This document shows positions 15,833 through 35,298 of a DNA stretch of 64,000 nucleotides, in pieces (within the stretch, counting starts at the first letter, position 1; each line of letters begins with the position of its first letter). This stretch comes from Verrucomicrobiota bacterium (GTDB taxonomy: Bacteria > Verrucomicrobiota > Verrucomicrobiia > Chthoniobacterales > Terrimicrobiaceae). Under the pieces are notes generated by a model. It did not search any database and was not told the origin of the DNA. It saw only the letters and a program-made list of their open reading frames with translations. The stretch lies in NCBI GenBank assembly GCA_026398275.1, contig JAPLTF010000032.1, forward strand, positions 124,001-188,000, given 5' to 3'. The position numbers were made by a program, and so were the translations under genes.

Positions 15833-16748
15833 CCGACCTTCATTCTACTTCGCCCTCATCGGCATCGTTGCCGTGATCCTGCTCGTCGCCCGGCTCCGCC
15901 ATACCGGTCCGGCTCCGGAGCCGCTCGTTCCTCCCCCGCAGTCCCCGTATGCCGAATCCATCGGAGCGCGCGGGATCGTCGAAAGCACCAATGAAAATGT
16001 CCGCATCGCCCCGGCCGCCTCGGGCCTCGTCGAAAAGGTCAACGTGAAAGTCGGCGACCAGGTGAAGGCGGGCGATGTCCTCTTTGTTATGGACTCGCGG
16101 GATGCGGCGGCGGCCGTCAAAACCTCCGAGGCCCAGCTCGCCGTCCAGCAGGCGCGCCTCGCCGAGAGCCAGACGCTTGTCGATGACCGTCGCGATACGC
16201 TCGAACGCGTGACTCGCCTCCGCCAGAAAAATGTGGCCAGCGTGGATGAATCGAAGCGGGATGAATTTGCGATGCAGACCGCGGAGCGCCAGTTCCAACG
16301 CACGACCGCCGACCTCGAACTCGCCCGCGCCCAGCTCAACGATGCCAGGGTCAGCCTCGATCTTCTCACCGTCCGGGCCCCGAGGAACGGGACGATCTTG
16401 CAGGTGAATATCCGCGCCGGCGAATACGCCGCCGTCAATTCCGCGGAGACAGCCGTCCTGCTCGGCGATGTCCGCGAGCTCCAGCTCCGCGCCGATGTGG
16501 ACGAGTCGGATGCCCCGCGCGTGAAGCCGGATTGCAAGGCCGTCGCCTTTCTCAAAGGCTCGCGCGAGCAGGCGATCCCACTGGAATTTGTCCGGATCGA
16601 GCCCTACATCCTTCCAAAAAAATCCCTCTCGGGCGAGAGCACCGAGCGCGTGGATACGCGGGTCCTCCAGGTCATTTTCCGATTCCAGAGCCCCGGTTTC
16701 CCGGTTTACGTCGGCCAGCAGATGGATGTCTTTATCGAGGAAAACTGA
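15825..16748 (+). CDS. HlyD-family membrane fusion protein (DevB-like)
   Basis: 307 residues: an N-terminal anchor (FYFALIGIVAVILLVARL), then ARGIVESTNENVRIAPAASG and the biotinyl-lipoyl half (VKVGDQVKAGDVLFVMDSRD). A coiled-coil hairpin follows (about 90-165, rich in Ala, Gln and Glu), then the second lipoyl half LLTVRAPRNGTILQVNIRAG and a beta-barrel domain. It should span the periplasm and link the ABC permease to an outer-membrane channel. No TolC-type gene lies nearby. Gene order permease-ATPase-adaptor differs from the classical devBCA order. Confidence 0.9.
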   Translation: MLNRPSFYFALIGIVAVILLVARLRHTGPAPEPLVPPPQSPYAESIGARGIVESTNENVRIAPAASGLVEKVNVKVGDQVKAGDVLFVMDSRDAAAAVKTSEAQLAVQQARLAESQTLVDDRRDTLERVTRLRQKNVASVDESKRDEFAMQTAERQFQRTTADLELARAQLNDARVSLDLLTVRAPRNGTILQVNIRAGEYAAVNSAETAVLLGDVRELQLRADVDESDAPRVKPDCKAVAFLKGSREQAIPLEFVRIEPYILPKKSLSGESTERVDTRVLQVIFRFQSPGFPVYVGQQMDVFIEEN

Positions 16749-16803
16749 GGCTTGAGCTTGAAAAGTTGAGGCGCAGTCGCATGCAAGCTGATAGGAGAAC
16801 CCC

Positions 16804-17628
16804 ATGAGCGATTCGTTTCAGGAGGCCATTCACGCCTCGCTACCCCTTTTGAAAAAGATCCAGAAAAGCATCAAGCCACTGCCCGGTGCCTCTGGAGCTG
16901 CGCTCGCGAAGCTTCGCGAAACCGCCGCAAATCGCCGCGCGCCAGCGCCAAAGCCCGCGGCAGCGCCGGCTCAGCGAGTCGAATCGGAATCCCCCCAACC
17001 GGCAAAGAAATGGACATTCGAGTCGCTCCGCGGGGCGGTTCTCGCCTGCGAAAAGTGCCCTCATCTTGTGCGCTCGCGCACCCAGGTCGTCTTCGGGGTC
17101 GGGAATCCGAATGCAGAGCTGATGTTCGTCGGCGAGGCGCCCGGCGCGGACGAGGACGAGCAGGGCGAGCCATTCGTCGGCAGGGCCGGACAGCTCCTCA
17201 CGAAGATGATCCAGGCGATGGGATTCGAGCGCTCGGATATTTTTATCGCGAACGTTTTGAAATGCCGTCCGGACATGCCCGACGGCGAATCCGGAAACCG
17301 GAAGCCGAAGCCCGCCGAAATGGGCACCTGCCTGCCCTGGCTCCGCGAGCAGATCGATCTCATCCAGCCACGAGCCATCGTGGCCCTCGGCGCGACCGCC
17401 GTGGAGGGGCTTCTCGGCGACACCTCTCCGATGCGCGACCTGCGCGGGAGGTGGCTGGAATTTCAAGGGATCCCGGTGATGGTGACCTACCACCCGGCCT
17501 ATCTGCTCCGGAATCAAACCATCACGGAAAAGCGCAAGGTCTGGGAGGACATGCTGCTTGTCCTCGAAAAGCTCGGAAAGAAAATCTCGGCGAAGCAACG
17601 GGCGTTCTTCACCAAGGCCGCCGATTGA
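16804..17628 (+). CDS. Family 4 uracil-DNA glycosylase
   Basis: 274 residues with a good ribosome site (AGGAGAA, 5 nt before the ATG). After a poorly conserved N-terminal extension of about 70 residues comes the Fe-S type UDG domain: CEKCPHL (first two cluster cysteines), the catalytic loop [20 protein letters not shown], then [14 protein letters not shown] with the third cysteine, MGTCLPWL with the fourth, and the DNA-reading motif [12 protein letters not shown]. The four cysteines should hold a [4Fe-4S] cluster. It removes uracil from DNA to begin base-excision repair. It is probably transcribed alone; the exporter genes end 55 bp upstream. Confidence 0.94.
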
Positions 17629-17793
17629 GTCACGGGCCCGCTGGGGGGCAAACTTTGATATTGGGCAAATTTTCGGGTTGCCAGAGGGAGGTCTCGTGCT
17701 AGCCTTCGACCTTTCCCCGGACTCGATTGGGAGGGATTCCGTTTCCTTGGCGAAGCGGCATCTGTCCCCGTCATCCGACCCGATCATCTCCCA

Positions 17794-18666
17794 ATGTTTT
17801 CAATCCCGATATTAGCCACCGCGTTGACCCTTCATGCGCCCCGTCTGTTTGACGAGGACGCAGGGATGAGCTTCACGGGGTTTCTGACGAATTCCATTTT
17901 CGTCAGCATCTTCATTTCGGGGTTTGTGATCTGGCTCTGCCGGAGCGCGACACGCAAGATGCTGATCGTCCCCTCCCCGCTCCAGAACGCATTCGAGCTC
18001 GTGGTCGAGGGCCTCTACGACATGCTGGAGGAAATCGTTGGACGGCACATGATCGCGCGCACGTTCTCCTTCCTCGCCACGCTGTTTATTTTCATTCTTG
18101 CCTCGAACTGGTTCAGCCTCCTGCCGGGTGTGGGGTCGGTCGGATGGTCGCATGAGAAGCCGGGTCCATTCCTCAGCCTGCCGCACGTCGACACCCCGCT
18201 CCTCCGCCCGACCACAGCGGATCTGAACATGACGCTCGCGATGGCGCTCATCTTCATGGTCCTCTGGCTCTACTGGTCGCTCAGCGAGGTCGGCCTGAAA
18301 AATTTCCTGCTCCACCTGTTCGGCGTGAAGGGCGGGCTGAAGGGCTTCATGGCGTTCGCCCTGGCGCCGGTTTTCTTTTTTGTGGGGATTATCGAGGTCG
18401 TCTCGATCCTTTTCCGACCGGTTTCCCTGTCGCTCCGGTTGTTCGGCAACGTCTTCGCCGGGGAAAACCTTCTGAGCTCGATGATCACGCTCGGCCAGGA
18501 CCTCCATCTTCCGAAGTGGGTCGCCTTGATCGCCTCGATCACCATTCCCGTTCCGTTCTACTTCCTCGAACTGCTTGTGGGCATCCTGCAGGCGCTGGTG
18601 TTTATGCTGCTCTGCGCGGTGTATATCCAGCTCGCCACGAGCCATGACGAAGAGGAGGAACACTGA
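17794..18666 (+). CDS. atpB: F1Fo ATP synthase subunit a
   Basis: 290 residues with five to six membrane spans. The key helix reads VSLSLRLFGNVFAGE, holding the essential arginine that releases protons from the c-ring, and the last helix has FYFLELLVGILQALVFMLL. First gene of the atp operon; no atpI-type gene precedes it. The start is uncertain: the ATG at 17794 has no clear ribosome site, and an in-frame ATG at 17866 (MSFTGFLTNSIF) also fits. A 165-bp gap after the UDG gene may hold the promoter, but no convincing -35/-10 pair was found. Confidence 0.93.
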   Translation: MFSIPILATALTLHAPRLFDEDAGMSFTGFLTNSIFVSIFISGFVIWLCRSATRKMLIVPSPLQNAFELVVEGLYDMLEEIVGRHMIARTFSFLATLFIFILASNWFSLLPGVGSVGWSHEKPGPFLSLPHVDTPLLRPTTADLNMTLAMALIFMVLWLYWSLSEVGLKNFLLHLFGVKGGLKGFMAFALAPVFFFVGIIEVVSILFRPVSLSLRLFGNVFAGENLLSSMITLGQDLHLPKWVALIASITIPVPFYFLELLVGILQALVFMLLCAVYIQLATSHDEEEEH

Positions 18667-18736
18667 GACTTTTCCGCTGTGACCGTGGCTGGACTGCGGG
18701 CGGCGGGGATAAAAACAACAACAACAGAAAATACAT

Positions 18737-18979
18737 ATGAACCTTTACATCATAGCAGAGGCCGCTTCGGCGGTCACGGGAGTCACCGGAAGCCTCACCC
18801 TCGCCCTCGCCGGCGCAGGCGCAGCCATCGGCGTCGGGATGGTCGGATCGAAAGCCGCAGAGGCGGTCGGCCGCAATCCCGGAGCGTTCGGCAAGGTGCT
18901 CACGATCAGCATTCTTGGCATGGCGCTCTCCGAGGCGATCGCGATTTACGCGCTCATCCTCGCCTTCCAGGGCCGCTGA
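18737..18979 (+). CDS. atpE: F1Fo ATP synthase subunit c
   Basis: 80 residues, two helices joined by the polar loop VGRNPGAF (R46-N47-P48). The ion-binding carboxylate is E66 (LGMALSEAIAIYALI). The residues that mark sodium-coupled rings (Gln in helix 1, and Ser/Thr after the Glu) are not present: helix 1 reads GAGAAIGVGMVG and the Glu is followed by Ala-Ile. A proton-coupled ring is therefore expected. It sits between atpB and atpF as usual. Confidence 0.95.
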   Translation: MNLYIIAEAASAVTGVTGSLTLALAGAGAAIGVGMVGSKAAEAVGRNPGAFGKVLTISILGMALSEAIAIYALILAFQGR

Positions 18980-19040
18980 CAACATTCTCGGGGCCGCCCG
19001 TCCACCGGACGCGGCGGCGCCCGACCCATTTCTATCTCTC

Positions 19041-19550
19041 ATGGAAGCGCTCACTCAAATTCTCACAAACTTCGGGGTCAACTGGCAGAAATTCGGTGCC
19101 CAGGCGATCCTGTTCCTCATCGTCTATCTGGTTCTGAAGAAGTTCGCCTTCGGCCCGGCTGTCGCCATGTTCGAGGAGCGGCGCCGACGGATTGAGGAGG
19201 GCCAGCTCAACGCCGAAAAGATCAAAAAGCAGCTCGCCGAATCCGAGGTCCGCTGCCAGGAGATCCTGCGCAAGGCGAATGCCGATGCGCAGCGCATCAT
19301 CGAGGAGGGCCGCACGAGCAGCGAGGCCCACAGCCAGAAGGCCTCGCAGCAGGCGATCAAGGATGCCGAGAGCATCATCACCCGCGCCCATGAGACGGTC
19401 GTTCTCGACCGCGCCAAAATGGTGGCCGAGGTCAAACAGGAAATGATCCACCTCGTCGTGGACACCACCGCAAAGGTCGCCGGCCGGATCCTCACCAAGG
19501 ACGACCAGGCCCGCCTCGCCGAAGAAACCTCCAAGCAGGTCGCCGCCTGA
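19041..19550 (+). CDS. atpF: F1Fo ATP synthase subunit b
   Basis: 169 residues from the ATG at 19041. One N-terminal membrane span (FGAQAILFLIVYLVLKKFAF) is followed by a long charged helix (EERRRRIEEGQLNAEKIKKQ onward) forming the peripheral stalk. Length is typical. The open frame reaches back to 18915, but that part overlaps atpE, so the internal ATG is chosen. It ends 4 bp before atpH. Confidence 0.93.
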   Translation: MEALTQILTNFGVNWQKFGAQAILFLIVYLVLKKFAFGPAVAMFEERRRRIEEGQLNAEKIKKQLAESEVRCQEILRKANADAQRIIEEGRTSSEAHSQKASQQAIKDAESIITRAHETVVLDRAKMVAEVKQEMIHLVVDTTAKVAGRILTKDDQARLAEETSKQVAA

Positions 19551-19554
19551 TCGC

Positions 19555-19944
19555 ATGAAACTCAGCCGGGAAGCCAGACGCCAGGCCCGCGAGCTCTTCG
19601 CCATGACAGTCGTGGACGGCCGTCTCGACACATCGCGGCTGAACACCATCTTCGGCGAAGTCGCCGAAAAAAAACCTCGCGACTACATGCCAATCCTCAA
19701 GGAGCTGACCCGACTGGTCCGCCTTGAGGTGGCCAGCCACCACGCGGTGATCGAGAGCGCCACCCCGCTGGATCCCGCCAACATCCAGAAATACGAAGCC
19801 GGCCTCACGGCCCGCTTCGGCGAGCTCACCACCGAATTCCGCCTCAACCCCGCCCTGATCGGCGGGCTCCGCGTGCAGATCGGCAGCGACGTCTGGGACG
19901 GCAGCGTCCAGGCACGCCTCGAAGCCATCAAACAACAACGTTAA
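19555..19944 (+). CDS. atpH: F1Fo ATP synthase subunit delta, short form
   Basis: 129 residues, against about 175-180 for most delta subunits. The C-terminal part is recognisable (RLVRLEVASHHAVIESATPL and a glycine-rich LIGGLRVQIGSDVWDGSVQA ending with a basic tail), matching the conserved region that contacts subunit b. The N-terminal bundle that grips subunit alpha is only about 50 residues instead of about 90-100. The position between atpF and atpA confirms identity. No frameshift is evident; the gene simply begins later, 4 bp after atpF. Confidence 0.88.
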   Translation: MKLSREARRQARELFAMTVVDGRLDTSRLNTIFGEVAEKKPRDYMPILKELTRLVRLEVASHHAVIESATPLDPANIQKYEAGLTARFGELTTEFRLNPALIGGLRVQIGSDVWDGSVQARLEAIKQQR

Positions 19945-19956
19945 TTTTTACCAACC

Positions 19957-21491
<1,535 letters not shown>

Positions 21492-21492
<1 letters not shown>

Positions 21493-22358
21493 TGGCCAAC
21501 CTGCGCGACATCCGGCGGCGGATCAAATCCGTCAAAAATACGGCCCAGATCACCAAGGCCATGCAGATGGTTGCGGCCTCGAAGATGCGCAAGGCCCAGC
21601 AGGCCGCCATCAACGGACGCGACTACGCGCAGCTCATGAACCGGGTCATCGTCTCGCTCCGCGACACCGTGGATCCGACCACGCATCCGCTCCTCGCCCG
21701 CCGCGAGGTGAAGCACGAACTCGTCCTGCTTTTCAGCACGGACAAAGGCCTGTGCGGCGGACTCAACACGAACCTCTTCCGCGAGGCCATGGAGTTCAAT
21801 CCCGAGACCACGTCGTTTGTCTCGGTCGGCCGCAAGGGCACGCAGTTCCTCGCGCGCATGAACCGGAAGATGCTCGCCGATTTCCCGCTCCGCGATCATC
21901 CGAATTTCCTCGAGACCAAGTCGATCTCGAAGTTCTGCATGGAGAAGTTTCTCGACGGCACGGTGGACAAGGTCACCGTCCTGTTCCCGATGTTCGTCAA
22001 CACGCTTTCCCAGGTTCCGAAAGCCATGCCCCTCCTTCCGCTGACCAGCTTCGAGGAGATCGGCCTCACCAACGAGTATGGCGAGGTCACATCGCTCGAG
22101 GGAGGAATCCTCTTCGAGCCGGCAGCCGAATCCGTCCTGGATGCCATCCTGCCCGCCTACATCCACTTCGGCGTTTACCAGACGCTCCTCGGAACCCGCG
22201 CGTCCGAACAGAGCGCCCGCATGGTCGCCATGAAAAGCGCCACCGACAACGCCAGGAACCTCGTCAAGGACCTCACTCTCGAATACAACAAAGCCCGCCA
22301 GGCCAGCATCACCAACGAGATCCTCGAGATCTCGACCGCCCAGCTCGCGCTCGGGTAG
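21492..22358 (+). CDS. atpG: F1Fo ATP synthase subunit gamma
   Basis: 288 residues, the central rotor stalk. The N-terminal helix reads MANLRDIRRRIKSVKNTAQI with TKAMQMVAASKMRKAQ, and the C-terminal helix ends SARMVAMKSATDNARNLVKD with YNKARQASITNEILEISTA, both diagnostic. Length is normal and the C-terminus is complete. In the usual order atpD (beta) and atpC (epsilon) would follow at once. Instead the sequence enters an hlyD-type remnant within a few bases of the stop. Confidence 0.96.
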
Positions 22359-22359
22359 C

Positions 22360-22596
22360 AGGCCGGACATCACGAACCGGGACATCGGGTTCGTCCACAC
22401 CGGCCTCGCGGCCGAGGTCGAGGTGGACAGCTTTCCGGCGCGCGAATACGGGCGCATTGACGGCAAGCTGATCTTTGTCGGCTCCGACGCCCTGCCTCCC
22501 ACCCAGGCGAAGCCGTTCTACAGCTTCCCCGCAAAAATCGAGATTTCACGCCAGAGCCTCGGCGTCCATGGCGTCGAAGTCCCGCTGCAATCAGGA
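22360..22596 (+). pseudogene. 3' remnant of an HlyD-type membrane fusion protein gene
   Basis: About 79 codons without a start. The frame reads NRDIGFVHTGLAAEVEVDSF, then PAREYGRIDGKLIFVGSDAL, and ends ISRQSLGVHGVEVPLQSG. This is the C-terminal beta-barrel signature of type I secretion adaptors (a D-I-G-F-V...V-x-V-x-F-P...YG-x-x-x-G-K pattern and a final L-x-x-G-M element). The homology breaks where the G-M motif should be, at 22596. It begins directly after atpG and is not related in detail to the DevB-like gene at 15825. Confidence 0.75.
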
Positions 22597-22669
22597 CATC
22601 CATCGGGCCAATGGGATGTCCGGCGGCCTCCAGCGAGGCGCGGATGGTCGCGGCATGGGACGACGTCAT
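22583..22669 (-). pseudogene. Remnant of a VapC-type PIN-domain toxin gene
   Basis: On the minus strand 29 codons read MTSSHAATIRASLEAAGHPI then GPMDVLIAA. VapC toxins carry IRAxLExxGxPIGxxDxLIAAHA with the conserved second-half aspartate, so the match is good over about 23 residues. It starts at the end of the corrinoid-activator gene and breaks at 22583. There it overlaps the end of the hlyD remnant on the other strand by about 14 bp. Too short to be functional; no vapB partner is seen. Confidence 0.6.
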
Positions 22670-24240
22670 ACCAGAGAGAGATGGTCGAGGTAGAGGTCCT
22701 CAAATCCGGGATCGAGGTTCAGCTCGATGGTTTTGGCGTCGAGGTCGGCCATTTCCGCGGCGAGCGAGCGGTCGAGCATGGCGAGGTAGGCGCCGCCGAG
22801 CGATGTGTTGCCGACGGCGGAGATCTGCTTTTCGGTGAAGCCCGGGAGCAGTCCGCAGGCGATGGCGTTCGGGATCGACAGGTGGAGTCCGAATCCGCCC
22901 GCCAAAAACAGCCGGCCGATCGCGGAGGCGGGCAGGCCCTGAAGATTCAGCAATGTCTCGATCCCTGCAGCGATCGCGGCCTTGGCCTGAAGAAGCAATG
23001 CGACATCCACCTCTCCGATGCGCAGGTCCGGAAGTCCGGGCGAGAGGAGGAAGCTGAGGCCGTTTTCCTCCTGGCGGAAATGCGCGGGGCACGCGTCCAC
23101 AAGGCTCCGGTTGAAGCGCCCGTTTTCCTGCAGCAGCCCAACGCGCCGGCCTGCCGCGAGGAAATCCACATACGCGGATCCCGTGATCCCGTGCGGGGAC
23201 GCGCAGGGGCCGCCGATCGTTTCGAAGCCGACGCCGAAGGGATCGGCCTGCAAAGTGATTTTTCCGACGACCCCCTGCGCGGCCCGCATCCCGCAGAGGA
23301 GCCCGCATCCTTCAAAGGCCGGCCCCGCCGCGGTCGCGCAGGAAAGATTTCCCTTCGGTCCGCAGAGCAGGATTTCGCCGTTTGTCCCGACGTCGACAAG
23401 CAGCTGCGGGCCGTCGCCATAGCGGACTCCGCAGCACGCGGCCCCGGCGGAAATATCCGCGCCGACATAGGCGGAGATGCCCGGGAGAAAAATGACGCGC
23501 GCCTCGCGCGGGAGGCCGAACATGTCGCCCGCAAATTCCCGCTGGTCGAGGAATGCCGGCGTGAAGGGCACCATGCCAAGCGGCGTGGGATCGATGCCGC
23601 AGGCCAGGTGCAGCATCGTGGTGTTCCCCGCCACGACCACTCCCGCCACGTCGGAGACCGCCGCCCCGGACTGCTTGAACAACTCCTTCAGCAGCGGGTG
23701 AAATGTCTTCTTCCAAAAGTCGTCCTTCAAGAGCCCGATGTTCGCCTTGTCGGTCTGGCAGAGATGGATCCTCGTGAGGACATTGTCTCCGCGGGAAACC
23801 TGCGCGTTCAGAGCCGTGGCCCTGGCGAGAACCTTTCCGCTGGCCAGCTCCGCGAGCAGCATGGCCACGGTCGTTGTGCCGATGTCGAGCGCCACGCCCA
23901 GCGTTCCCGGCTCGGTGAAAATCGGATCGCTGCCGACCGGCACGCCGGTCTGAAAATCGCTGACCACCGAGGGCGGATGCGAGAGCAGCGAGCGCCCCGG
24001 AATCGCAATGCGGATCGAGTCTCCCGCGCTGACATGATGCTGGCAGGCGAGCAGATCCTGCGGCGGATCTCCCTGCAAAATCACATGGCATCCCCGGCAC
24101 AGCCCGCGCTGGCTGCAGCGCGTGTTGAGCGGATACCCGGCGGATTCCAAAATCTCCGCAAGCGTCCGCTCCAGCCCGTCCGCTACCAGGTGGCGCAGGC
24201 GGCCGCCGGACTCGACCTCGATGGCGATGGAATTATTCAC
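22666..24240 (-). CDS. Corrinoid-enzyme activator: [2Fe-2S] ferredoxin plus ASKHA ATPase (RACE/RamA-like, DUF4445)
   Basis: 524 residues from a GTG at 24240, 2 bp after the stop of the methyltransferase gene; an ATG at 24297 overlapping that gene is the alternative. An N-terminal ferredoxin domain has C42-x5-C48-x2-C51-x14-C66 (NTRCSQRGLCRGCHV, then LLACQ). The C-terminal ASKHA ATPase has ALDIGTTTVAMLL (phosphate-1), GVVVAGNTTMLHL, LLVDVGTNGEIL (phosphate-2) and AGGFGLHLSIPNA. Proteins of this family use ATP and an electron donor to re-reduce Co(II) corrinoid in methyltransferases. The adjacent homocysteine methyltransferase gene suggests methionine-synthase repair as the job. That link is inferred from position. 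Confidence 0.9.
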   Translation of the reverse strand: MNNSIAIEVESGGRLRHLVADGLERTLAEILESAGYPLNTRCSQRGLCRGCHVILQGDPPQDLLACQHHVSAGDSIRIAIPGRSLLSHPPSVVSDFQTGVPVGSDPIFTEPGTLGVALDIGTTTVAMLLAELASGKVLARATALNAQVSRGDNVLTRIHLCQTDKANIGLLKDDFWKKTFHPLLKELFKQSGAAVSDVAGVVVAGNTTMLHLACGIDPTPLGMVPFTPAFLDQREFAGDMFGLPREARVIFLPGISAYVGADISAGAACCGVRYGDGPQLLVDVGTNGEILLCGPKGNLSCATAAGPAFEGCGLLCGMRAAQGVVGKITLQADPFGVGFETIGGPCASPHGITGSAYVDFLAAGRRVGLLQENGRFNRSLVDACPAHFRQEENGLSFLLSPGLPDLRIGEVDVALLLQAKAAIAAGIETLLNLQGLPASAIGRLFLAGGFGLHLSIPNAIACGLLPGFTEKQISAVGNTSLGGAYLAMLDRSLAAEMADLDAKTIELNLDPGFEDLYLDHLSLV

Positions 24241-24242
24241 AA

Positions 24243-25127
24243 TCAGGCCAATGCCCCCGCCATGGCGGCGAGGTGGGCGGGAGTCGTGCCGCAGCATCCC
24301 CCGATGATCGAGATTCCGGCATCGCGCAGGCGCAGAGCGGCGGCGGCCATCTCCTCCGGCGTGGCGTCGTAGACGACTCCCTCCGGCGTGGACTTTGGTG
24401 CGCCGGCATTCGGCTGCAGGATCGCGGGGGCGGATCCGGCGGCGGCCTTCAATTCCTTTGCCAGAGCCGCGTAGTCGTCCAGGCTCAGATCGGTTCCGCA
24501 GTTGGCCCCGACGATGTCCGCGCCCGCCTCAAGCGCCGCCGCGATGGCATCGCCCACCGGCGTGCCCATCATCGTGCGGAACCCGTCCGCGGATTTTTGA
24601 AAAGCATACGTCACCACGACCGGAAGTCCGGAAACCGACTTTGCCGCGCGAACCCCCACAGCCGCCTCGGCGGGATCGCTCATCGTCTCGACCAGAATCG
24701 CATCCGCCCCACCCTCGACAAGCGCCCCGATCTGCTCGCTGAAGATCGCGAGCAACTGATCTTCGGTCGTATCGCCCAGCGGCTCGAGAAAATCCCCGAA
24801 CGGCCCGACATCGCCGAAGACCCAGCCATCGGGACCCGCCGCCGCCCGTGCGAGCGCGGCCGCTTTCCGGTTCCAATTGAGGACCTGATCGCCGAGACCG
24901 TGGCGCTCGAGCATCGTCCGCGTTCCGCCGAAAGAATTTGTCGTGATCAGTCGGCAGCCGGCCTGTGCGTAGGCCGAGTGGACGGCACCCACGTCGGCCG
25001 CCCGCTCCTCGTTCCATCGCATTCCACATTCCCCCGGAGTAAGACCACGAAGCATGAGCTGGGTTCCCATCGCGCCGTCGCAAACCACGACGCCGGATCG
25101 GCAGACTGAGAGGAGATCAGATTTCAT
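24243..25127 (-). CDS. Homocysteine S-methyltransferase (MetH N-terminal / BHMT family)
   Basis: 294 residues. Starts VVVCDGAMGTQLMLRG, continues LITTNSFGGTRTMLERHGL, and carries the three zinc-binding cysteines in VGANCGTDLS and IIGGCCGTTPAHLAAMA. It transfers a methyl group to homocysteine to give methionine. This is only the Hcy-binding half of MetH: folate, cobalamin and activation domains are absent, so it is either a stand-alone methyltransferase (for example using S-methylmethionine or betaine) or one part of a split MetH. The corrinoid activator follows 2 bp downstream, favouring a corrinoid-linked role. Confidence 0.88.
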   Translation of the reverse strand: MKSDLLSVCRSGVVVCDGAMGTQLMLRGLTPGECGMRWNEERAADVGAVHSAYAQAGCRLITTNSFGGTRTMLERHGLGDQVLNWNRKAAALARAAAGPDGWVFGDVGPFGDFLEPLGDTTEDQLLAIFSEQIGALVEGGADAILVETMSDPAEAAVGVRAAKSVSGLPVVVTYAFQKSADGFRTMMGTPVGDAIAAALEAGADIVGANCGTDLSLDDYAALAKELKAAAGSAPAILQPNAGAPKSTPEGVVYDATPEEMAAAALRLRDAGISIIGGCCGTTPAHLAAMAGALA

Positions 25128-25242
25128 CGTGGCGGATCATCCTTGTCCAGAGCTTCGCATTCAATCGGAAAATTCTGAAAATCCTGAAGCATGGAAGACT
25201 CAGAATCCTCTTGTGGATATCACAGAAATCTATTGACCGAAG

Positions 25243-25277
25243 TGGGGAAAAATGGTGAAAGGTGGGACTATGTGGCG
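25243..25277 (+). promoter_or_regulatory. MraZ boxes upstream of the dcw cluster
   Basis: Four TGGNN pentamers (TGGGG, TGGTG, TGGGA, TGGCG) stand at 25243, 25253, 25263 and 25273, each separated by exactly 5 bp. This is the known binding pattern of MraZ, which binds TGGGN repeats spaced by 5 nt in its own promoter. The last box ends 28 bp before the mraZ ATG, so binding would block transcription start or elongation into the cluster. Confidence 0.85.
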
Positions 25278-25305
25278 GATTGGGCCACTTTATATCCACT
25301 AACTC

Positions 25306-25761
25306 ATGGGGCAGGAATCCACAAAGGCGACGATTTACTCCGGCACGTTCCCGCGTTCATTGGACGCGAAGAAGCGTGTTGCGATTCCGTCTGCGTGGGT
25401 TTCCGGCGAGGGCGAGGAGTTTCATGTCGCCCCCCATCCCGGCGAGCGGATGCTGATGGTGATGCGGCAGGAGGAGTTGGGGAAATGGGAGCAGCGGTTC
25501 CAGGAATCCACCAAGCTGACCGCCCAGCAGAAGCGCGGAGCGATCCGGGCATTCTACGCCTCGGCCCGGGCTGTGAGCACCGACAAGCAGGGGCGGATCC
25601 TTCTTCCCGAATCCCATTGCGAGTGGGCGCAGCTCGACGGTGAGGTCGTTTTTCTCGGCTCGCCCGGCCGGATTGAAATCTGGTCCGTGAAGAACTTCCA
25701 GGCGAACGAAGCCACCAACCGGTCTGCGCTGCAGGCCGCCGCCGAGGAGAGCGGCCTTTGA
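25306..25761 (+). CDS. mraZ: Transcriptional regulator MraZ
   Basis: 151 residues with the two AbrB-like swapped-hairpin repeats: YSGTFPRSLDAKKRVAIPSAW at the N-terminus and ASARAVSTDKQGRILLPESH in the second half. The D-x-K-x-R-x-x-x-P signature is present in both. It forms a ring that binds tandem TGGGN boxes and represses the dcw operon; four such boxes lie just upstream. First gene of the cluster, 135 bp before rsmH. Confidence 0.95.
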   Translation: MGQESTKATIYSGTFPRSLDAKKRVAIPSAWVSGEGEEFHVAPHPGERMLMVMRQEELGKWEQRFQESTKLTAQQKRGAIRAFYASARAVSTDKQGRILLPESHCEWAQLDGEVVFLGSPGRIEIWSVKNFQANEATNRSALQAAAEESGL

Positions 25762-25896
25762 GATGAAACCACAATGAGGAAATCAACCTGATGGCAAAAG
25801 GCGGCCGGACATTTTTCTTCGGATTCCATCCCGGGAAATCCGGAGATGGAAAACCCACCGGACACGCCACCATTAAAATCCGACCCCGGAACGCAT

Positions 25897-26892
25897 ATGA
25901 ACTTCTTGGATTGCGAAGACCTGCTGGAAACACTCTTGGAAAAAACTGACGAGAACGGCCCCGTTTACCATGTCCCGGTGATGCTGGACGAGGTGGCGGC
26001 CCTGCTGCGCCCCGCGCCGGGAATGTTGTTTTTGGATGGAACCGTCGGGGGGGGCGGGCACAGCGAGCGCCTTTTGGAATGCGGAGCCGAGGTCATCGGG
26101 CTCGATCAGGATGTCGAAGCCATTGAGGAGGCGCGCCGGAGGCTGGCGCGGTTCGGATCCCGCCTCAGGCTCGTGGAGGCGAACTTCCGTGAGGCGGAAG
26201 GCGTGCTGGATGATCTGGGCGAGAGGCGCGGCCTCGCGGGCGCGCTGCTGGATATCGGGGTCTCGTCGCACCAGCTCGACACGGCGGAGCGGGGGTTTGC
26301 GCTGATGAAGGACGGCCCGCTCGACATGCGGATGAGCCGCGCTTCGGCCCTGAGCGCCGCGGACCTTGTGAACACGAGCCCGGTCGCGGATCTGGCAAAG
26401 ATTTTCCGGGAATACGGCGACGAGCCGCGCGCGATGCAGATCGCCGCACGGATCGGTGCCCTGCGGGTGCAGCATCCGTTCGCGACAACCTTCGACCTCG
26501 CGGCCGCGGTCTCCTCCGTGGCCCCGCGAACGAGCGGCCGGCATCCGGCCACCAGGGTTTTCCAGGCGCTGCGGATCGCGGTCAACGACGAGCTGGGAGC
26601 GTTGAAGGAGGCGCTTGAAACCATCCCCGCCAACCTCGCTCCCGGCGGACGGCTCGCGGTGATCACCTTCCACTCGCTCGAGGACCGGATCGTCAAACAC
26701 TTCTTCCGCGACCACAGCCAGGAGTGGGTTGACCGGCCGGAGTGGCCGGAGCCGCGCCGCAACCCCAACCGCATTTTCCGGCTTCTCACACCCCATCCCA
26801 TGGATGCGGGCGCCGAAGAAATTGCGAACAACCCCCGCGCACGGAGCGCCAAGCTCCGCGTCGTGGAAAAACTGAAGGAGACCACGCCATGA
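25897..26892 (+). CDS. rsmH: 16S rRNA (cytosine-1402-N4) methyltransferase RsmH (MraW)
   Basis: 331 residues from the ATG at 25897. The ATG at 25846 adds 17 residues but has no room for a ribosome site, so the inner one is preferred (CGGAA 5 nt upstream). Motifs: YHVPVMLDEVAALL, the SAM loop FLDGTVGGGGHSERLL, GLDQDVEAIEEARRRL, LLDIGVSSHQLDTAERGFAL, FQALRIAVNDELGAL and VITFHSLEDRIVKHFF. The enzyme methylates C1402 in 16S rRNA and is a fixed member of dcw clusters. The stop overlaps ftsL (ATGA). Confidence 0.96.
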   Translation: MNFLDCEDLLETLLEKTDENGPVYHVPVMLDEVAALLRPAPGMLFLDGTVGGGGHSERLLECGAEVIGLDQDVEAIEEARRRLARFGSRLRLVEANFREAEGVLDDLGERRGLAGALLDIGVSSHQLDTAERGFALMKDGPLDMRMSRASALSAADLVNTSPVADLAKIFREYGDEPRAMQIAARIGALRVQHPFATTFDLAAAVSSVAPRTSGRHPATRVFQALRIAVNDELGALKEALETIPANLAPGGRLAVITFHSLEDRIVKHFFRDHSQEWVDRPEWPEPRRNPNRIFRLLTPHPMDAGAEEIANNPRARSAKLRVVEKLKETTP

Positions 26893-27257
26893 ACGCCAAC
26901 CGCAGAAAGCAAGTCAATCCCGTCCACCTGTCCTCGCTCATCCGATGCATGCTGGTCGCCCTCTTCGTCGGCGTCAGCGCGCTGTTCTTTCTCTTCATCA
27001 AAAACCAGCAGTTCGCGCTGGCGGAGGAGATCCGGCAGATGGAGCGGAAGATCGCCAACGTCCGCTCGCAGAACGAGACCCTGCTGGCCCATGTCACGGA
27101 GCTCTCCTCCCGCCGGATGCTGCAGCAGCGGATCGCGGAGGGCTTTATCTCCATGAAGCTCATCCAGGATAACGCGATCGCCCGCCTGACGCCTCCCGCG
27201 CAGGCCACGGCCGATGGCGTCCTCCGCACGGCCTTCAACGAAGGCGTCCGCCAATGA
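26889..27257 (+). CDS. ftsL: FtsL-like division protein
   Basis: 122 residues from the ATG at 26889, overlapping the rsmH stop by 4 bp. It has a short basic cytoplasmic tail, one membrane span (CMLVALFVGVSALFFLFIK) and a periplasmic coiled coil (QFALAEEIRQMERKIANVRS onward) of about 45 residues. Sequence conservation in FtsL is low; identity rests on size, topology and place between rsmH and ftsI. FtsL pairs with FtsB and FtsQ to activate FtsWI. The stop overlaps ftsI (ATGA). Confidence 0.85.
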   Translation: MNANRRKQVNPVHLSSLIRCMLVALFVGVSALFFLFIKNQQFALAEEIRQMERKIANVRSQNETLLAHVTELSSRRMLQQRIAEGFISMKLIQDNAIARLTPPAQATADGVLRTAFNEGVRQ

Positions 27258-29014
27258 GGTGGACGGCACGCACACGCACCGGCTTTGCCTGTGCTGCCGT
27301 CGCGATGGTTTTTACTGCCTACTCGGCACGGCTGGTCGAGCTTCAGGTGGCGAAGCACAAGGAATATTCGCAGATGGCGGCCGAAAAGCATACGATGCGG
27401 CAGGTGATCCACGCCCGTCGCGGGCTGATCTTTGACCGGAACGGGGAGCTGCTGGCCTCGAACCTTCCGGTGCGCACGGTCGTCGCGGATGGATCCCATG
27501 TCAAAGATCCCGCCGCCCTGGCCAGGGTCGCGGCCCCGTTTCTCGGCATGGACGAGAAGGAGCTTTGCGCCAAGCTCACCAGCGGGCGGAAGTATATTGT
27601 CATCCGCCACGAACTCGCCGAGGAGACCGCCCTCGCTCTGGGGAAGGCGATCCAGGATGCCAACCTGCGCGGGCTGTATTTTGAGCCGGACGCCGTCCGC
27701 ACCTACCCGAACGGCCAGATGCTCGGGCATGTCCTCGGATTTTTAAACAATGAGGGCGCCGGAATCCAGGGCGTGGAGATGTCGATGGAGAAATCCCTTC
27801 GCGGGCAGGATGGATACCGCTACATCGAGCACGACCGGACCGGGCGCGAGATCATGCTCTACCGGGGGCAGGAGGAGCCGGCGGTCCATGGCCTGAACGT
27901 GCGGCTGACGATCGATATGGGGTTGCAGGCGATTCTGGAGGATGAGCTGGATTCGGCATTCAAGGACCTCAGGCCGGAGATGGCGGTGGGCATCATCATG
28001 GATCCCAACACGGGCGAGATTCTCGCCATGACCAACCGCCCCTGCTTCGATCCGAACCATCCGGGCGACGCCAAATCGGAGCAGATGAAAAACCGCGCGA
28101 TCATCGACATGGTCGAGCCCGGGTCCACATTCAAAATCGTCGTGGCTTCCGGCGCGCTGAATGAAGGCAAGGTCAACGAAAAGACATCGATCTACTGCGA
28201 GAACGGGGCCTTCGCTTACGGCGGCAGGATCCTCCGCGACCACCACGGTTACGGCTCGATGGGCGTCCACGACATCCTTGTGAAATCCTCAAACATCGGC
28301 TCTGCGAAAATGGCGCTGATGATGGGGGACACCAAATTCTACGAGTATGTGAAGCGGTTCGGATTCGGCGACCGCACCGGTATCGAGCTGCCCGGCGAGA
28401 TCCCCGGCCTCGTGCATCCCCCGCATCGCTGGGACAAGCTGACCATCACCCGCATGCCGATGGGGCAGTCGGTCGCCGTGACTCCGCTGCAAATGACCAT
28501 GGGCATGTCGGTCATCGCAAACGGAGGCCGGCTGCTTGCTCCGCAAATCATCCGCTCCGTGGAGGATTCCGACGGGAGCGTCGTGGTCAGCAAGCCGCCG
28601 AAAGTTGTCCGGGAAGTCGTTCCCCAAAAGACCGCCCGCTTTGTCAGCGAGGCGCTGACCGGCGTGGTGGGCGAGGGGGGCACGGCGCAACTGGCGAAAA
28701 TCGCCGGGTTCACGGTCGCCGGCAAAACCGGCACCGCGCAAAAAGTCAGCCCCTCCGGCGGCTATGCCCAGGGAAAATATGTCGTCTCGTTCGTTGGCTA
28801 CCTTCCGCAGGAAGACCCGCGGTTCGTCTGCCTGGTCATGCTCGACGATGCGAAGGTCGCCTCGAATTTGAACTACGGCGGGCTCGTGGCCGCCCCGATT
28901 TTTTCGCGGATCGGCGAGCGGGCCGCCCGCTACCTCGACCTCGTTCCCTCGCTCCGCGCGGAGCCGACCGGACCGCTCGCCCTGCGCGAGCAAAAGCAGG
29001 AAAGGACGAACTGA
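27254..29014 (+). CDS. ftsI: Peptidoglycan transpeptidase FtsI (class B PBP, PBP3)
   Basis: 586 residues. One N-terminal span (GFACAAVAMVFTAYSARLVE) precedes the PBP dimerisation domain (VIHARRGLIFDRNGELLASN). The transpeptidase has S291-T-F-K (VEPGSTFKIVVAS), the SxN motif (VKSSNIGSAKM) and the KTG motif (VAGKTGTAQKVSP). It cross-links septal peptidoglycan together with FtsW, encoded downstream. No C-terminal PASTA domain is present. It overlaps ftsL by 4 bp and ends 3 bp before murE. Confidence 0.96.
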   Translation: MRWTARTRTGFACAAVAMVFTAYSARLVELQVAKHKEYSQMAAEKHTMRQVIHARRGLIFDRNGELLASNLPVRTVVADGSHVKDPAALARVAAPFLGMDEKELCAKLTSGRKYIVIRHELAEETALALGKAIQDANLRGLYFEPDAVRTYPNGQMLGHVLGFLNNEGAGIQGVEMSMEKSLRGQDGYRYIEHDRTGREIMLYRGQEEPAVHGLNVRLTIDMGLQAILEDELDSAFKDLRPEMAVGIIMDPNTGEILAMTNRPCFDPNHPGDAKSEQMKNRAIIDMVEPGSTFKIVVASGALNEGKVNEKTSIYCENGAFAYGGRILRDHHGYGSMGVHDILVKSSNIGSAKMALMMGDTKFYEYVKRFGFGDRTGIELPGEIPGLVHPPHRWDKLTITRMPMGQSVAVTPLQMTMGMSVIANGGRLLAPQIIRSVEDSDGSVVVSKPPKVVREVVPQKTARFVSEALTGVVGEGGTAQLAKIAGFTVAGKTGTAQKVSPSGGYAQGKYVVSFVGYLPQEDPRFVCLVMLDDAKVASNLNYGGLVAAPIFSRIGERAARYLDLVPSLRAEPTGPLALREQKQERTN

Positions 29015-29017
29015 CCC

Positions 29018-30487
29018 GTGAGGCTCACCACGCTCCTTCAATCCGCCGGAATGCCGGATATTCTTGCCGATCCGGAGATCACCTCGCTCGCCTACGACTC
29101 CCGCCTCGCGGGTGAGGGCAGCCTGTTTTTTGCGCTGCCCGGGACAAGGACAAACGGCGCGGAGTTCGCCCGGCAGGCCGCGGAAAAAGGCGCGGCCGCC
29201 GTGGTGGCGGAATCGCCCGTTGTGGACTGCGGCTGCCCGGTCGTGCAGGTCCCGGATGCGCGGGCCGCGATGGCCGACATCGCAGCCGCATTTTACGGCC
29301 ACCCGGACCGGTCGCTGAAATGTGCGGGCGTGACGGGAACAAACGGAAAGACGACCTCCGCATTTCTGATGAAGCACGTGCTGGATTCGGCCTCGCTCCG
29401 CAGCGGGCTCATCGGCACGGTGAAATATGTTGTGGGATCCGAGGAGATTTCCGCGCCGAGGACGACGCCCGAATCGGCGGACCTTCAGGAGATGATGGCC
29501 CGCATGCGCGATTGCGGATCCAAAGCGGTCGCCATGGAGGTGTCCAGCCATGCCCTCGTGCAGAAGCGCGTGAGGGGCATCGAGTTTGATGCGGCGGTCT
29601 TCACCAACCTCACGCAGGACCATCTCGATTACCACCGCACGATGGAGGCGTATTTCGACGCGAAGACGCTCCTCTTCGAGAGCCTCGCCGCCCAGACGCA
29701 CAAGAAGGGCCGCGCGATCATCAACGCCGACGACCGGCACGGGCACCTGCTCATGGAGAGGCTCGGAAAAAACGTGAAGGCCGTCACGTTCGGCCGCGGC
29801 GTGGGGGCGGACTTCCGCGCGAGCGCCATCCAGTTCGACGGGACGGGATCCGTCTTCCATCTCGATGCCCGGAAAAAAAGTTTTCTGGTGAGGACGCCAC
29901 TGATCGGGCTCTTCAATATTTACAATGTCCTCGCGGCCCTCGCGGCTGCGGCGGCGTGCGGCGTGGAGCTGCGTGGAGCGATCGCGGCGCTCGCATCGGC
30001 TCCCCAGGTGCCCGGCCGCCTCGAGCGCGTTCCGGCCAAGCGGAATTTCCATGTGTTCGTGGACTACGCCCACACGGACGACGCCCTCAGAAATGTTCTC
30101 CGCACGCTGCAGGAACTGAAGCCGTCCCGGCTGATCACGGTTTTCGGATGCGGGGGCGACCGCGACCGCGCCAAGCGCCCGCTCATGGCTGCGGCCGCCG
30201 AGGAATTTTCCGACTGGTCGATCCTCACCTCGGACAACCCGCGCCGCGAGGACCCCGAGGACATCCTCGCGGATGTCCGGGCCGGAATGCGCGGGACGAA
30301 TTTTGAAAAGATCACCGACCGCGAGAATGCGATCCGCCGCGCGGTCGAACTGGCGGCCCCGGGAGACATCGTGCTCATCGCGGGGAAGGGCCACGAGAAC
30401 TACCAGGAATTCGCGGACCGCCGGATCACATTCGACGATGTCGACGTCGCCGGGAAGGCGATGGCCCACAAGAAGGCGGAGGCCTGA
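29018..30487 (+). CDS. murE: UDP-MurNAc-tripeptide synthetase MurE
   Basis: 489 residues from a GTG start. ATP loop GVTGTNGKTTS (about residues 105-114), then TTPESADLQEMMARM, FTNLTQDHLDYHRTMEAYF (Mur ligase metal site), VDYAHTDDALRNVL and the substrate region TSDNPRREDPEDILADV. The DNPRxE motif marks enzymes adding meso-diaminopimelate rather than lysine, so a DAP-type peptidoglycan is expected. Order and length are standard. Confidence 0.96.
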   Translation: MRLTTLLQSAGMPDILADPEITSLAYDSRLAGEGSLFFALPGTRTNGAEFARQAAEKGAAAVVAESPVVDCGCPVVQVPDARAAMADIAAAFYGHPDRSLKCAGVTGTNGKTTSAFLMKHVLDSASLRSGLIGTVKYVVGSEEISAPRTTPESADLQEMMARMRDCGSKAVAMEVSSHALVQKRVRGIEFDAAVFTNLTQDHLDYHRTMEAYFDAKTLLFESLAAQTHKKGRAIINADDRHGHLLMERLGKNVKAVTFGRGVGADFRASAIQFDGTGSVFHLDARKKSFLVRTPLIGLFNIYNVLAALAAAAACGVELRGAIAALASAPQVPGRLERVPAKRNFHVFVDYAHTDDALRNVLRTLQELKPSRLITVFGCGGDRDRAKRPLMAAAAEEFSDWSILTSDNPRREDPEDILADVRAGMRGTNFEKITDRENAIRRAVELAAPGDIVLIAGKGHENYQEFADRRITFDDVDVAGKAMAHKKAEA

Positions 30488-30491
30488 CACC

Positions 30492-31859
30492 ATGGACCCG
30501 CTGCCACTCAAAGAAATCGCGGAGATGTCCGGGGCAAAGCTCCTCCGCGGGGACGCTCGGACAATGGTTGCGCGGATCTCCAAGGACTCGCGGACGATCC
30601 AGGCCGGCGACCTCTACGTCGCGCTGCGCGGAGACAACTTCGATGGCAACCTGTTCCCGGCGGACGCGGCGGCCCGCGGGGCGGCAGCCGCGCTGGTCGA
30701 CAATGAGTCGGCGGCGTCCGGGCTTCCGGCGGATTTTCCGGTATTGCTCGCCGGGTCGGGGCTGGATGCGCTGACCCGCCTTGCGGCGGCCTGGCGGTCC
30801 CGCCTGAAATTGAAGGTGCTCTGCATCACCGGCAGCAACGGAAAAACCAGCACGAAAGAATTTGCGACCGGCGTCCTCGGCGCTCGCTTCCAGGTCGTCA
30901 AGACCGAGGGAAATTTGAACAACCACATCGGCGTGCCGCTCTCGATTCTCTCCGCCAGCACGTCGGACACCGCCGCTGTTTGGGAGATCGGGATGAACCA
31001 CCCCGGCGAGATTGCCCCGCTGGCCGCCCTGGCAAAACCGGATGCCGCCATCATCACAAACATCGGGATCGCACACATCGAATACATGAAGACCCGCGAG
31101 GCCATCTCCCTCGAAAAAGGCGCGCTCGCCGAGGCCGTCCCGCCGGAAGGATTTGTGGTCCTTTCCGCCGAAGATGACCAGTCGGACGCCATCGCGTCGC
31201 GCACGAAGGCCCGGGTCGTCCGCGCGGGACTTTCCAGCGGGACCATCACCGCGAGTTCCCTGGTCGAGACCATCGAGGGATGCTCGTTTGTCGTCCATGC
31301 CGGCGGACAGTCCTTCGACACCTCGATCCCCTGCAATGGCTCCCACATGGTCCGCAACGCCCTGCTCGCCGTCGCCGCCGGGATCGAATTCGGAATCTCC
31401 CCCGGGGATGCGGTCTCGGGCCTCCCTCAAACACGCCTTGCCGGGGGAAGGCTCCAGCACCGCATCATTCGGGGGATCTCCTTCCTCGACGACACCTACA
31501 ATGCCAACCCCGATTCCATGGTGGCCGCCCTGACCACGTTGCGCGCGCTCCCGGGCAGCGGGCGCCGGATCGCCGTCCTCGGACGCATGGGCGAGCTGGG
31601 AGATTACGAATTGGAAGGATACCGGCGCACGGGGGCCGCCGCCGGGAAAACTGTCGACATCCTCATCACAGTTGGAGCGGAAACCGCTTCCCTCGCGGAT
31701 GCGGCGCGCGAGACCGGGCTCGGGAGGATCCACGAGGTGGATGACACCGCGTCGGCCTCGCTCATGCTCGATAACCTGGCCCGGCCCGGCGATGTCGTCC
31801 TCGTCAAAGGAAGCCGGTCCGCCCGCATGGAAACCGTCCTGAAAAATTTCGAACAATAA
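30492..31859 (+). CDS. murF: UDP-MurNAc-pentapeptide synthetase MurF
   Basis: 455 residues from the ATG at 30492 (the open frame upstream overlaps murE). It has DSRTIQAGDLYVALRGDNFD, the ATP loop ITGSNGKTSTKEFATGVLG, NLNNHIGVPLSIL, WEIGMNHPGEIAPLA and DDTYNANPDSMVAAL, all characteristic of MurF. It adds D-Ala-D-Ala, which the downstream Ddl supplies. The stop overlaps mraY (TAATG). Confidence 0.96.
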   Translation: MDPLPLKEIAEMSGAKLLRGDARTMVARISKDSRTIQAGDLYVALRGDNFDGNLFPADAAARGAAAALVDNESAASGLPADFPVLLAGSGLDALTRLAAAWRSRLKLKVLCITGSNGKTSTKEFATGVLGARFQVVKTEGNLNNHIGVPLSILSASTSDTAAVWEIGMNHPGEIAPLAALAKPDAAIITNIGIAHIEYMKTREAISLEKGALAEAVPPEGFVVLSAEDDQSDAIASRTKARVVRAGLSSGTITASSLVETIEGCSFVVHAGGQSFDTSIPCNGSHMVRNALLAVAAGIEFGISPGDAVSGLPQTRLAGGRLQHRIIRGISFLDDTYNANPDSMVAALTTLRALPGSGRRIAVLGRMGELGDYELEGYRRTGAAAGKTVDILITVGAETASLADAARETGLGRIHEVDDTASASLMLDNLARPGDVVLVKGSRSARMETVLKNFEQ

Positions 31860-32989
31860 TGCTCTACTACCTTTCAGACCTCAGCGCGTGGGCCCAGGCG
31901 CAGGGGATCGATAACGACTTTTTCAAGGCGTTCAACGTCTTTTCCTACATCACATTCCGCGCGATCTGCGCGGGGATCACGGCCTTTTTGATCAGCCTCA
32001 TCTTCGGAAACTGGGTGATCCGGAAGCTGATCTCCCTGAAGCTCGGCCAGCCGATCCGCAGCAAGGAGGAGGTCCATAAACTGTTCGAGCTGCACGGCGC
32101 AAAAATGGGAACTCCCACCATGGGGGGGATCCTGCTCGTCGGCTCGATCGTCCTCTCCACGCTCCTCTGGGCCAAGCCGGAAAACCCGTTTGTCTGGCTC
32201 GTTCTCTTCAGCACGCTTTTCCTCGGTGCCATCGGATTTTACGACGACTGGCTGAAGGTGACGAAGAAGAGCTCGAAGGGGATCAGCAGCCGGCTCAAGT
32301 TCATTCTCCAGTGCCTGCTCGCGGCGGTGTTCACGATTTACTTTTTGAGCAACCCGAAGCTGGCCGGAATCGCCCAGCAGCTCAACATTCCGTTCTCCAA
32401 GGAGCCGCTGATTTTCAGCCTGGGCTGGGGGACGTTCATCTTTTATCTGCTCGTGATTGTCGGCACGTCGAACGCGGTGAACCTCACCGACGGTCTCGAC
32501 GGACTGGCCACCGGCTGCACGGCCACCGTGGCAGCCACGTATGCGGTGCTGGTTTACCTCGCCGGCAACATCAAGGCCGCCACGTATCTGCAGGTTCCGT
32601 TTGTGGTCTACTCCGGCGAGCTGACGATTCTGTGCACGGCGCTGCTCGGTGCGTGCCTCGGGTTCCTTTGGTGGAACGCGCATCCTGCACGGGTCTTCAT
32701 GGGCGACACCGGCTCGCTGGCCATCGGCGGGATGCTCGGTGCCGTGGCGATCTGCTGCAAACAGGAACTGCTTCTCGTCATCGTCGGCGGCGTCTTTGTC
32801 ATCGAGGCGATGTCGGTCATCCTGCAGGTCGCGAGCTTCAAGCTGACTGGAAAGCGGATCATCAAGATGTCGCCCCTGCACCACCATTTCGAGTTGAGCG
32901 GATGGAAGGAAAACACCGTGATCGTGAGGTTCTGGATCATGTCCGTCCTCTTCGCCCTGCTCGGCCTCGCCACGCTCAAACTCCGTTGA
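31859..32989 (+). CDS. mraY: Phospho-MurNAc-pentapeptide translocase MraY
   Basis: 376 residues and about ten membrane spans. Catalytic and substrate motifs: KMGTPTMGGILL, FYDDWLKVTKKSSKGISSRLKF, NLTDGLDGLATG (catalytic Asp), FLWWNAHPARVFMGDTGSLAIGG and MSPLHHHFELSGWKE. It forms lipid I at the inner face of the membrane. The one-base overlap with murF implies coupled translation. Confidence 0.97.
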   Translation: MLYYLSDLSAWAQAQGIDNDFFKAFNVFSYITFRAICAGITAFLISLIFGNWVIRKLISLKLGQPIRSKEEVHKLFELHGAKMGTPTMGGILLVGSIVLSTLLWAKPENPFVWLVLFSTLFLGAIGFYDDWLKVTKKSSKGISSRLKFILQCLLAAVFTIYFLSNPKLAGIAQQLNIPFSKEPLIFSLGWGTFIFYLLVIVGTSNAVNLTDGLDGLATGCTATVAATYAVLVYLAGNIKAATYLQVPFVVYSGELTILCTALLGACLGFLWWNAHPARVFMGDTGSLAIGGMLGAVAICCKQELLLVIVGGVFVIEAMSVILQVASFKLTGKRIIKMSPLHHHFELSGWKENTVIVRFWIMSVLFALLGLATLKLR

Positions 32990-32990
32990 A

Positions 32991-34316: not shown

Positions 34317-34323
34317 AACCCAC

Positions 34324-35241: not shown

Positions 35242-35298
35242 GCGTTTGTCCGGAATTCCACTCCGGTGGAGTTCCTGAGCTTCCGGAAATAACTCTCC

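What the first reader, a model, noticed from the sequence alone, without database searches (positions are those of the whole stretch)
22360..22669. Two unrelated gene remnants on opposite strands share a 14-bp junction
The plus strand shows the C-terminal end of an HlyD-type adaptor up to 22596. The minus strand shows a VapC PIN-domain piece from 22669 to 22583. Each homology stops inside the other, at a shared stretch of about 14 bp. This looks like a microhomology end-joining scar and marks a rearrangement breakpoint.
Basis: partly seen in the sequence, partly recalled or inferred. Interest (0 to 1): 0.5.

Follow-up and report, generated by a model that had tools for sequence, protein, structure and literature searches.

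The report
Scar of two broken gene fragments
Between two intact bacterial genes lies a 307-base stretch pieced together from a broken secretion-adaptor gene and a broken toxin gene, a leftover of chromosome rearrangement that is real but of an ordinary kind.

Summary
Plus strand 22365-22595 is an internal piece of a type I secretion HlyD gene, 212 of 231 bases identical to an intact hlyD elsewhere in the same genome. Minus strand, about 22663-22583, is a 27-residue piece of a VapC toxin. They overlap by 13 bp; against the nearest known parents the exact shared runs are only 3 and 5 bp. The pieces fill nearly the whole spacer between intact atpG (stop 22356-22358) and an intact convergent RACo-type gene (stop 22668-22666). 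In relative G001 and at a second locus of this genome RACo is followed by a PocR/AraC-like regulator; here only its first bases seem to remain. No match spanning a junction was seen in the relatives searched. Ku was not found in the four genus genomes. Contig C32 of this genome holds a RACo remnant with two deletions at about 5-bp repeats. Best reading: a non-functional scar of illegitimate recombination, most likely stepwise deletion; templated capture of fragments is not excluded. Ordinary; low interest.

The parts
21492..22358 (+). intact atpG (ATP synthase gamma), left border of the scar
   Evidence: Pfam PF00231 E 7e-87; one match in each of the 12 genomes searched
22359..22365 (.). junction 1 (atpG spacer / HlyD piece); six bases of unknown origin, 22359-22364
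   Evidence: genus relatives' atpG homology ends at 22348-22358, HlyD homology starts at 22365
22365..22595 (+). HlyD fragment: 77 codons from the inside of a 513-codon gene, both ends missing
   Evidence: 92% nt identity to C110 hlyD, 81% to G002 hlyD, TIGR01843 E 1.7e-10
22583..22595 (.). junction 2: 13-bp overlap of the HlyD and VapC homologies
   Evidence: C110 hlyD matches 11 of 13; G003 vapC matches 22584-22593
22583..22663 (-). VapC fragment, about 27 residues around the IRAxLExxGxPIGPMDxLIAA core, both ends missing
22658..22669 (-). junction 3: VapC piece / first bases (ATGAC) that look like a former pocR-like start overlapping the RACo stop
   Evidence: C32 homology reaches window 22665; RACo followed by a PocR/AraC-like gene in C32 and G001 (label by eye)
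22666..24297 (-). intact RACo-type corrinoid-activation gene, right border of the scar
   Evidence: Pfam RACo_C_ter E 2.8e-57 and Raco_middle E 6.5e-42; G001 orthologue 84%

Best explanation
The 307-bp spacer between atpG and RACo is a non-functional rearrangement scar. Genes that once lay there (a second hlyD on the plus strand, a vapC on the minus strand, and the regulator gene that follows RACo in G001 and at C32) were removed by illegitimate recombination at very short microhomologies. Only an internal hlyD piece and a vapC core piece were left, joined tail to tail. Shown: both pieces are real, truncated at both ends and bounded by intact genes; no spanning match was seen in the relatives searched; an intact hlyD persists elsewhere in the genome; Ku was not found. 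Inferred: that the loss went by successive deletions (strand slippage or Ku-independent end joining) and not by one capture event, and that a whole hlyD and vapC once lay here.
For: The intact atpG stop lies six bases from the HlyD piece and the RACo stop within a few bases of the VapC piece, as expected if deletions run up to genes kept by selection. RACo is followed by a PocR/AraC-like gene in G001 and at C32; here that gene is gone after what look like its first bases. The same genome's C32 locus holds a RACo remnant of three pieces whose two joins share 5 bp (CGCAT, GCCAA) between the parent sites, judged on the diverged window RACo, then a regulator gene with an internal deletion relative to G001 (by eye). 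Ku (PF02735) gave 0 matches in G000-G003. Leaving out the VapC overlap, changes assigned to the window lineage are 3 non-synonymous and 2 synonymous, to the C110 lineage 1 and 7, with 4 unassigned: the direction expected for a dead copy, but too few to be significant.
Against: No genome searched shows the intermediate (whole hlyD plus vapC beside atpG or RACo): 28 relatives (at most 24 candidates scored per genome), 25 other family genomes. A single VapC query (E 1e-6) found no vapC in the 16-20 kb held around C110 hlyD, G002 hlyD, C32 and G001 RACo; distant VapC would be missed. The actual vapC parent was not found: no second DNA copy of the VapC piece in the own genome below E 0.08 apart from the hlyD overlap. 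So the microhomology at junction 2 is an estimate. The hlyD piece has no indel or stop in 231 bp, which fits slow decay or a short captured copy equally.
Confidence: 0.6

Rival explanations
1. Templated capture: while a break or stalled fork at the atpG/RACo border was repaired, a polymerase switched templates at microhomologies and copied a 231-bp piece of hlyD and about 80 bp of a vapC into the join (MMBIR-like filler DNA), leaving the source genes whole.
For: An hlyD source is still intact at C110; a 20-kb scan (window 16001-36000) found only this one piece of it (40 of 145 first-look candidates scored). A 10-nt perfect inverted repeat GCCGGACATC links junction 1 (22362-22371) with the VapC piece (22615-22624); a 13-mer scores as well against the VapC piece at 21 of 4540 overlapping positions of the atp region, a test chosen after the fact. 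MMBIR has been proposed for E. coli (PMC5542668, passages).
Against: Needs two captures; source vapC not found; the piece differs from C110 at 8% of bases, so the donor may have been another copy; deletion is the commoner process in bacteria (recalled).
Confidence: 0.3
2. Assembly artefact: the pieces were joined by the assembler or by strain mixing.
For: G000 is in 117 contigs with 3.84% contamination; no second genome showed the junctions.
Against: The HlyD piece is 92%, not 100%, identical to the other copy, and the exact shared runs at junction 2 with known parents are 3 and 5 bp, far below assembler word lengths (recalled). The joins fall outside the intact flanking genes.
Confidence: 0.06
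3. A functional element: a fused or antisense small gene, or a terminator between convergent genes.
For: Open frames run through both strands (99 aa minus, 649 aa plus); a GGACATCC...GGATGTCC hairpin lies in the VapC piece.
Against: No terminator-like or promoter-like site found; hairpin no better than shuffles (z 0.10 and -0.52 on the two strands); the VapC piece covers positions 76-102 of a 130-position profile; the arrangement was not seen in relatives.
Confidence: 0.04

Closest known systems
Gene remnants (decaying pseudogenes) in bacterial intergenic spacers
   Same: Truncated pieces of once functional genes fill a spacer between intact genes, as described for Buchnera spacers (PMC3164680, passages seen).
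   Different: Here two pieces from unrelated genes on opposite strands are fused, in a 4.66-Mb genome rather than a reduced symbiont genome.
Ku-independent (alternative, microhomology-mediated) end joining in bacteria
   Same: Join at a few bp of microhomology in a genome where Ku was not found; MMEJ has been reported in E. coli (Chayot et al. 2010, as cited in PMC12426944, passages seen).
   Different: No break was observed; the parent of one side is unknown; slipped-strand deletion gives the same footprint.
Microhomology-mediated break-induced replication (template switching)
   Same: Short ectopic segment with a source gene retained, as proposed for E. coli rearrangements (PMC5542668, passages seen).
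   Different: Only one of the two sources is located, and it is 8% diverged.

Membership tests
HlyD type I secretion adaptor | Sequence match to the family | tested here: met
   TIGR01843 E 1.7e-10 over positions 321-389 of 422; 40.5 bits, below the curated 208.65, being a fragment
HlyD type I secretion adaptor | Full-length gene | tested here: not met
   77 of 513 codons present
VapC PIN-domain toxin | Sequence match to the family | tested here: met
   no Pfam-A hit
VapC PIN-domain toxin | Complete PIN domain (about 130 aa) | tested here: not met
   about 27 residues, profile positions 76-102 of 130
VapC PIN-domain toxin | Adjacent vapB antitoxin gene | tested here: not met
   by position only: the piece lies between the HlyD piece and the RACo stop; no antitoxin family search was run
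Microhomology-mediated illegitimate join | A few bp shared by both parents at the join | tested here: inconclusive
   GCT and CAATC shared with nearest known parents, one mismatch between; true vapC parent not found
Classical NHEJ scar | Ku present in the genome | tested here: not met
   PF02735: 0 matches in G000-G003; matches in 5 of the 19 genomes searched
Rearrangement breakpoint | Synteny lost on both sides in relatives | tested here: met

The most novel reading that the evidence does not exclude
One repair event at the atpG border in a bacterium without detectable Ku switched templates several times (vapC, hlyD, vapC in the other orientation). This would explain the 10-nt inverted repeat GCCGGACATC shared by junction 1 and the VapC piece, and would be a multi-template filler of the kind known from eukaryotic break repair.
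Probability: 0.12. Interest if true: 0.35.

Novelty: new member of a known kind. Interest (0 to 1): 0.13.

Why it matters
It is one well-delimited example of how a bacterial spacer is built from gene debris, with an intact hlyD in the same genome to compare against and a second locus (C32) showing the same type of join. It would matter more only if shown to be a one-step multi-template insertion.

Tried and rejected
Functional spacer: no promoter-like or terminator-like site, hairpins not clearly better than shuffles (102, 52 and 30 of 200 shuffles fold as well). Classical NHEJ: no Ku match in the four genus genomes. An hlyD-vapC neighbourhood as donor: no vapC match in the 20 kb held of C110 with one VapC query. 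A vapC parent at high DNA identity: none in 26 family genomes, own included (best 83% over 40 bp in G003), and none in the own genome. A general repeat or mobile element: in window 16001-36000 only this HlyD piece and two RACo stretches matched elsewhere in the genome at E 1e-6, with 40 of 145 first-look candidates scored; the other 44 kb of the window were not scanned. An exact 20-mer across junction 2 gave no match in viral contigs. A first VapC HMM was built from six ORFs of which only two were VapC; it still ranked the piece first (E 0.0039) but was discarded and rebuilt from the three real VapC proteins recovered from 13 loci tried. The inverted repeat at junction 1 was tested after being seen, so it is only a lead. 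Four literature searches were made (listings seen); the end-joining ones returned mostly eukaryotic work, and passages of three papers were read. No claim is made that such scars are unreported.

Full report
What is there. The window is G000:C102:124001-188000 of a 4.66-Mb, 117-contig genome. The nearest named record found for its atpG protein is a MAG labelled Chthoniobacterales bacterium VE2, 89% (records of the window's own genome may be left out there). From left to right: atpG ends with TAG at 22356-22358; six bases follow; 22365-22595 is an HlyD piece on the plus strand; about 22583-22663 is a VapC piece on the minus strand; the RACo-type gene ends at 22668-22666 on the minus strand. The names BHMT, corrinoid protein and PocR/AraC-like regulator used below are read by eye from the translations; no family search was run on them.

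HlyD piece. It matches the intact 513-codon hlyD on contig C110 of the same genome over 231 gap-free bases, 212 identical, and the hlyD of same-genus G002 at 81%. TIGR01843 gives E 1.7e-10. Of the 19 differences from C110, 13 are at third codon positions. With G002 as outgroup, and leaving out the overlap with VapC, the window lineage has 3 non-synonymous and 2 synonymous changes, the C110 lineage 1 and 7, and 4 cannot be assigned. The direction fits a dead copy; the numbers are too small for a test.

VapC piece. NCBIfam VapCLeptosp E 4.4e-4. PDB: the best seven of nine sequences listed are tRNA(fMet)-specific VapC, E 0.029 to 0.18. In the own genome the nearest vapC is 70% identical over 27 aa, E 2.1e-6. 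An HMM made from three VapC proteins (own C31 and C76, G003) puts this segment first of 1167 six-frame segments of at least 25 aa in the window, E 1e-10, next 2.1; these three had been found with the piece itself, so the value flatters. Pfam gave nothing.

The junctions. Junction 2: the two homologies overlap at 22583-22595. C110 hlyD has two mismatches there (22587, 22593), G002 hlyD also has CTC where the window has CTG, and the G003 vapC agrees with the window at 22584-22593. So the strand probably passes from hlyD to vapC sequence within about 22583-22587, at a few bp of identity; the 14-bp figure is an overlap of detectable similarity, not of exact identity. Junction 3: in C32 and G001 the RACo stop overlaps or adjoins the start of a PocR/AraC-like gene; window homology to C32 runs to 22665, that is through ATGAC, then VapC begins. 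Junction 1: atpG homology of the three genus relatives ends at 22348-22358 and hlyD begins at 22365.

Context. RACo was found in 3 of 8 genomes (G000, G001, G002). Of 12 genomes whose atpG was fetched with up to 1.5 kb beyond it (0.65 kb in G016), atpD follows atpG in 2 (G006, G007) and RACo only in the window; by ORF inspection the four genus members have four different neighbours. In the eight genomes checked, all of genera g1 and g2, atpD lies on another contig than atpG. The mraZ homology of G001-G003 starts at 25229-25243 and the G001 RACo-BHMT block ends at 25141, so the pair BHMT-RACo sits between two breakpoints.

Mechanism. Ku gave no match in G000-G003 but did in 5 of the 19 genomes of that search. 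In the same genome, contig C32 carries a RACo remnant in three pieces whose joins share CGCAT and GCCAA between the parent sites (5 bp each, judged on the diverged window RACo), beside a regulator gene with an internal deletion relative to G001 (by eye). That makes short-repeat deletion a process seen at a second locus of this genome. MMEJ has been reported in E. coli (PMC12426944, passages) and template switching at microhomology proposed there (PMC5542668, passages). I prefer stepwise deletion (0.6), with templated capture second (0.3).

Negative and limiting results. No intermediate was found; the vapC parent is unknown; no second genome carried the junctions, so an assembly artefact cannot be fully excluded, though 92% identity and tiny shared runs speak against it. 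Spacer function is unsupported.

Verdict. Low interest.

Noticed in passing
L122 8679-8897 (G000:C32 about 28678-28896): A RACo remnant of three collinear pieces joined where the parent sites share 5 bp, in an open frame of 97 aa, next to a corrinoid-protein-like gene and a PocR/AraC-like gene with an internal deletion (labels by eye).
   Followed up: partly
window 22362-22371 and 22615-22624: A perfect 10-nt inverted repeat GCCGGACATC links junction 1 with the VapC piece; possible trace of a template switch or chance.
   Followed up: partly
window 21492-22358; G000:C68:66530-67933: atpD is on a different contig from atpG in 8 of 8 genomes checked of genera g1 and g2, but directly follows it in G006 and G007.
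   Followed up: partly
window 25141-25243: A second synteny break: the BHMT-RACo pair abuts mraZ here, unlike in G001, G002 and G003.
   Followed up: partly
L120 229-5598 and 11456-15906: The intact hlyD lies beside an ABC-transporter-like gene and, about 6 kb away, a 1789-aa protein with many GGxGxD-like repeats (RTX-like by eye; no family search run).
   Followed up: no
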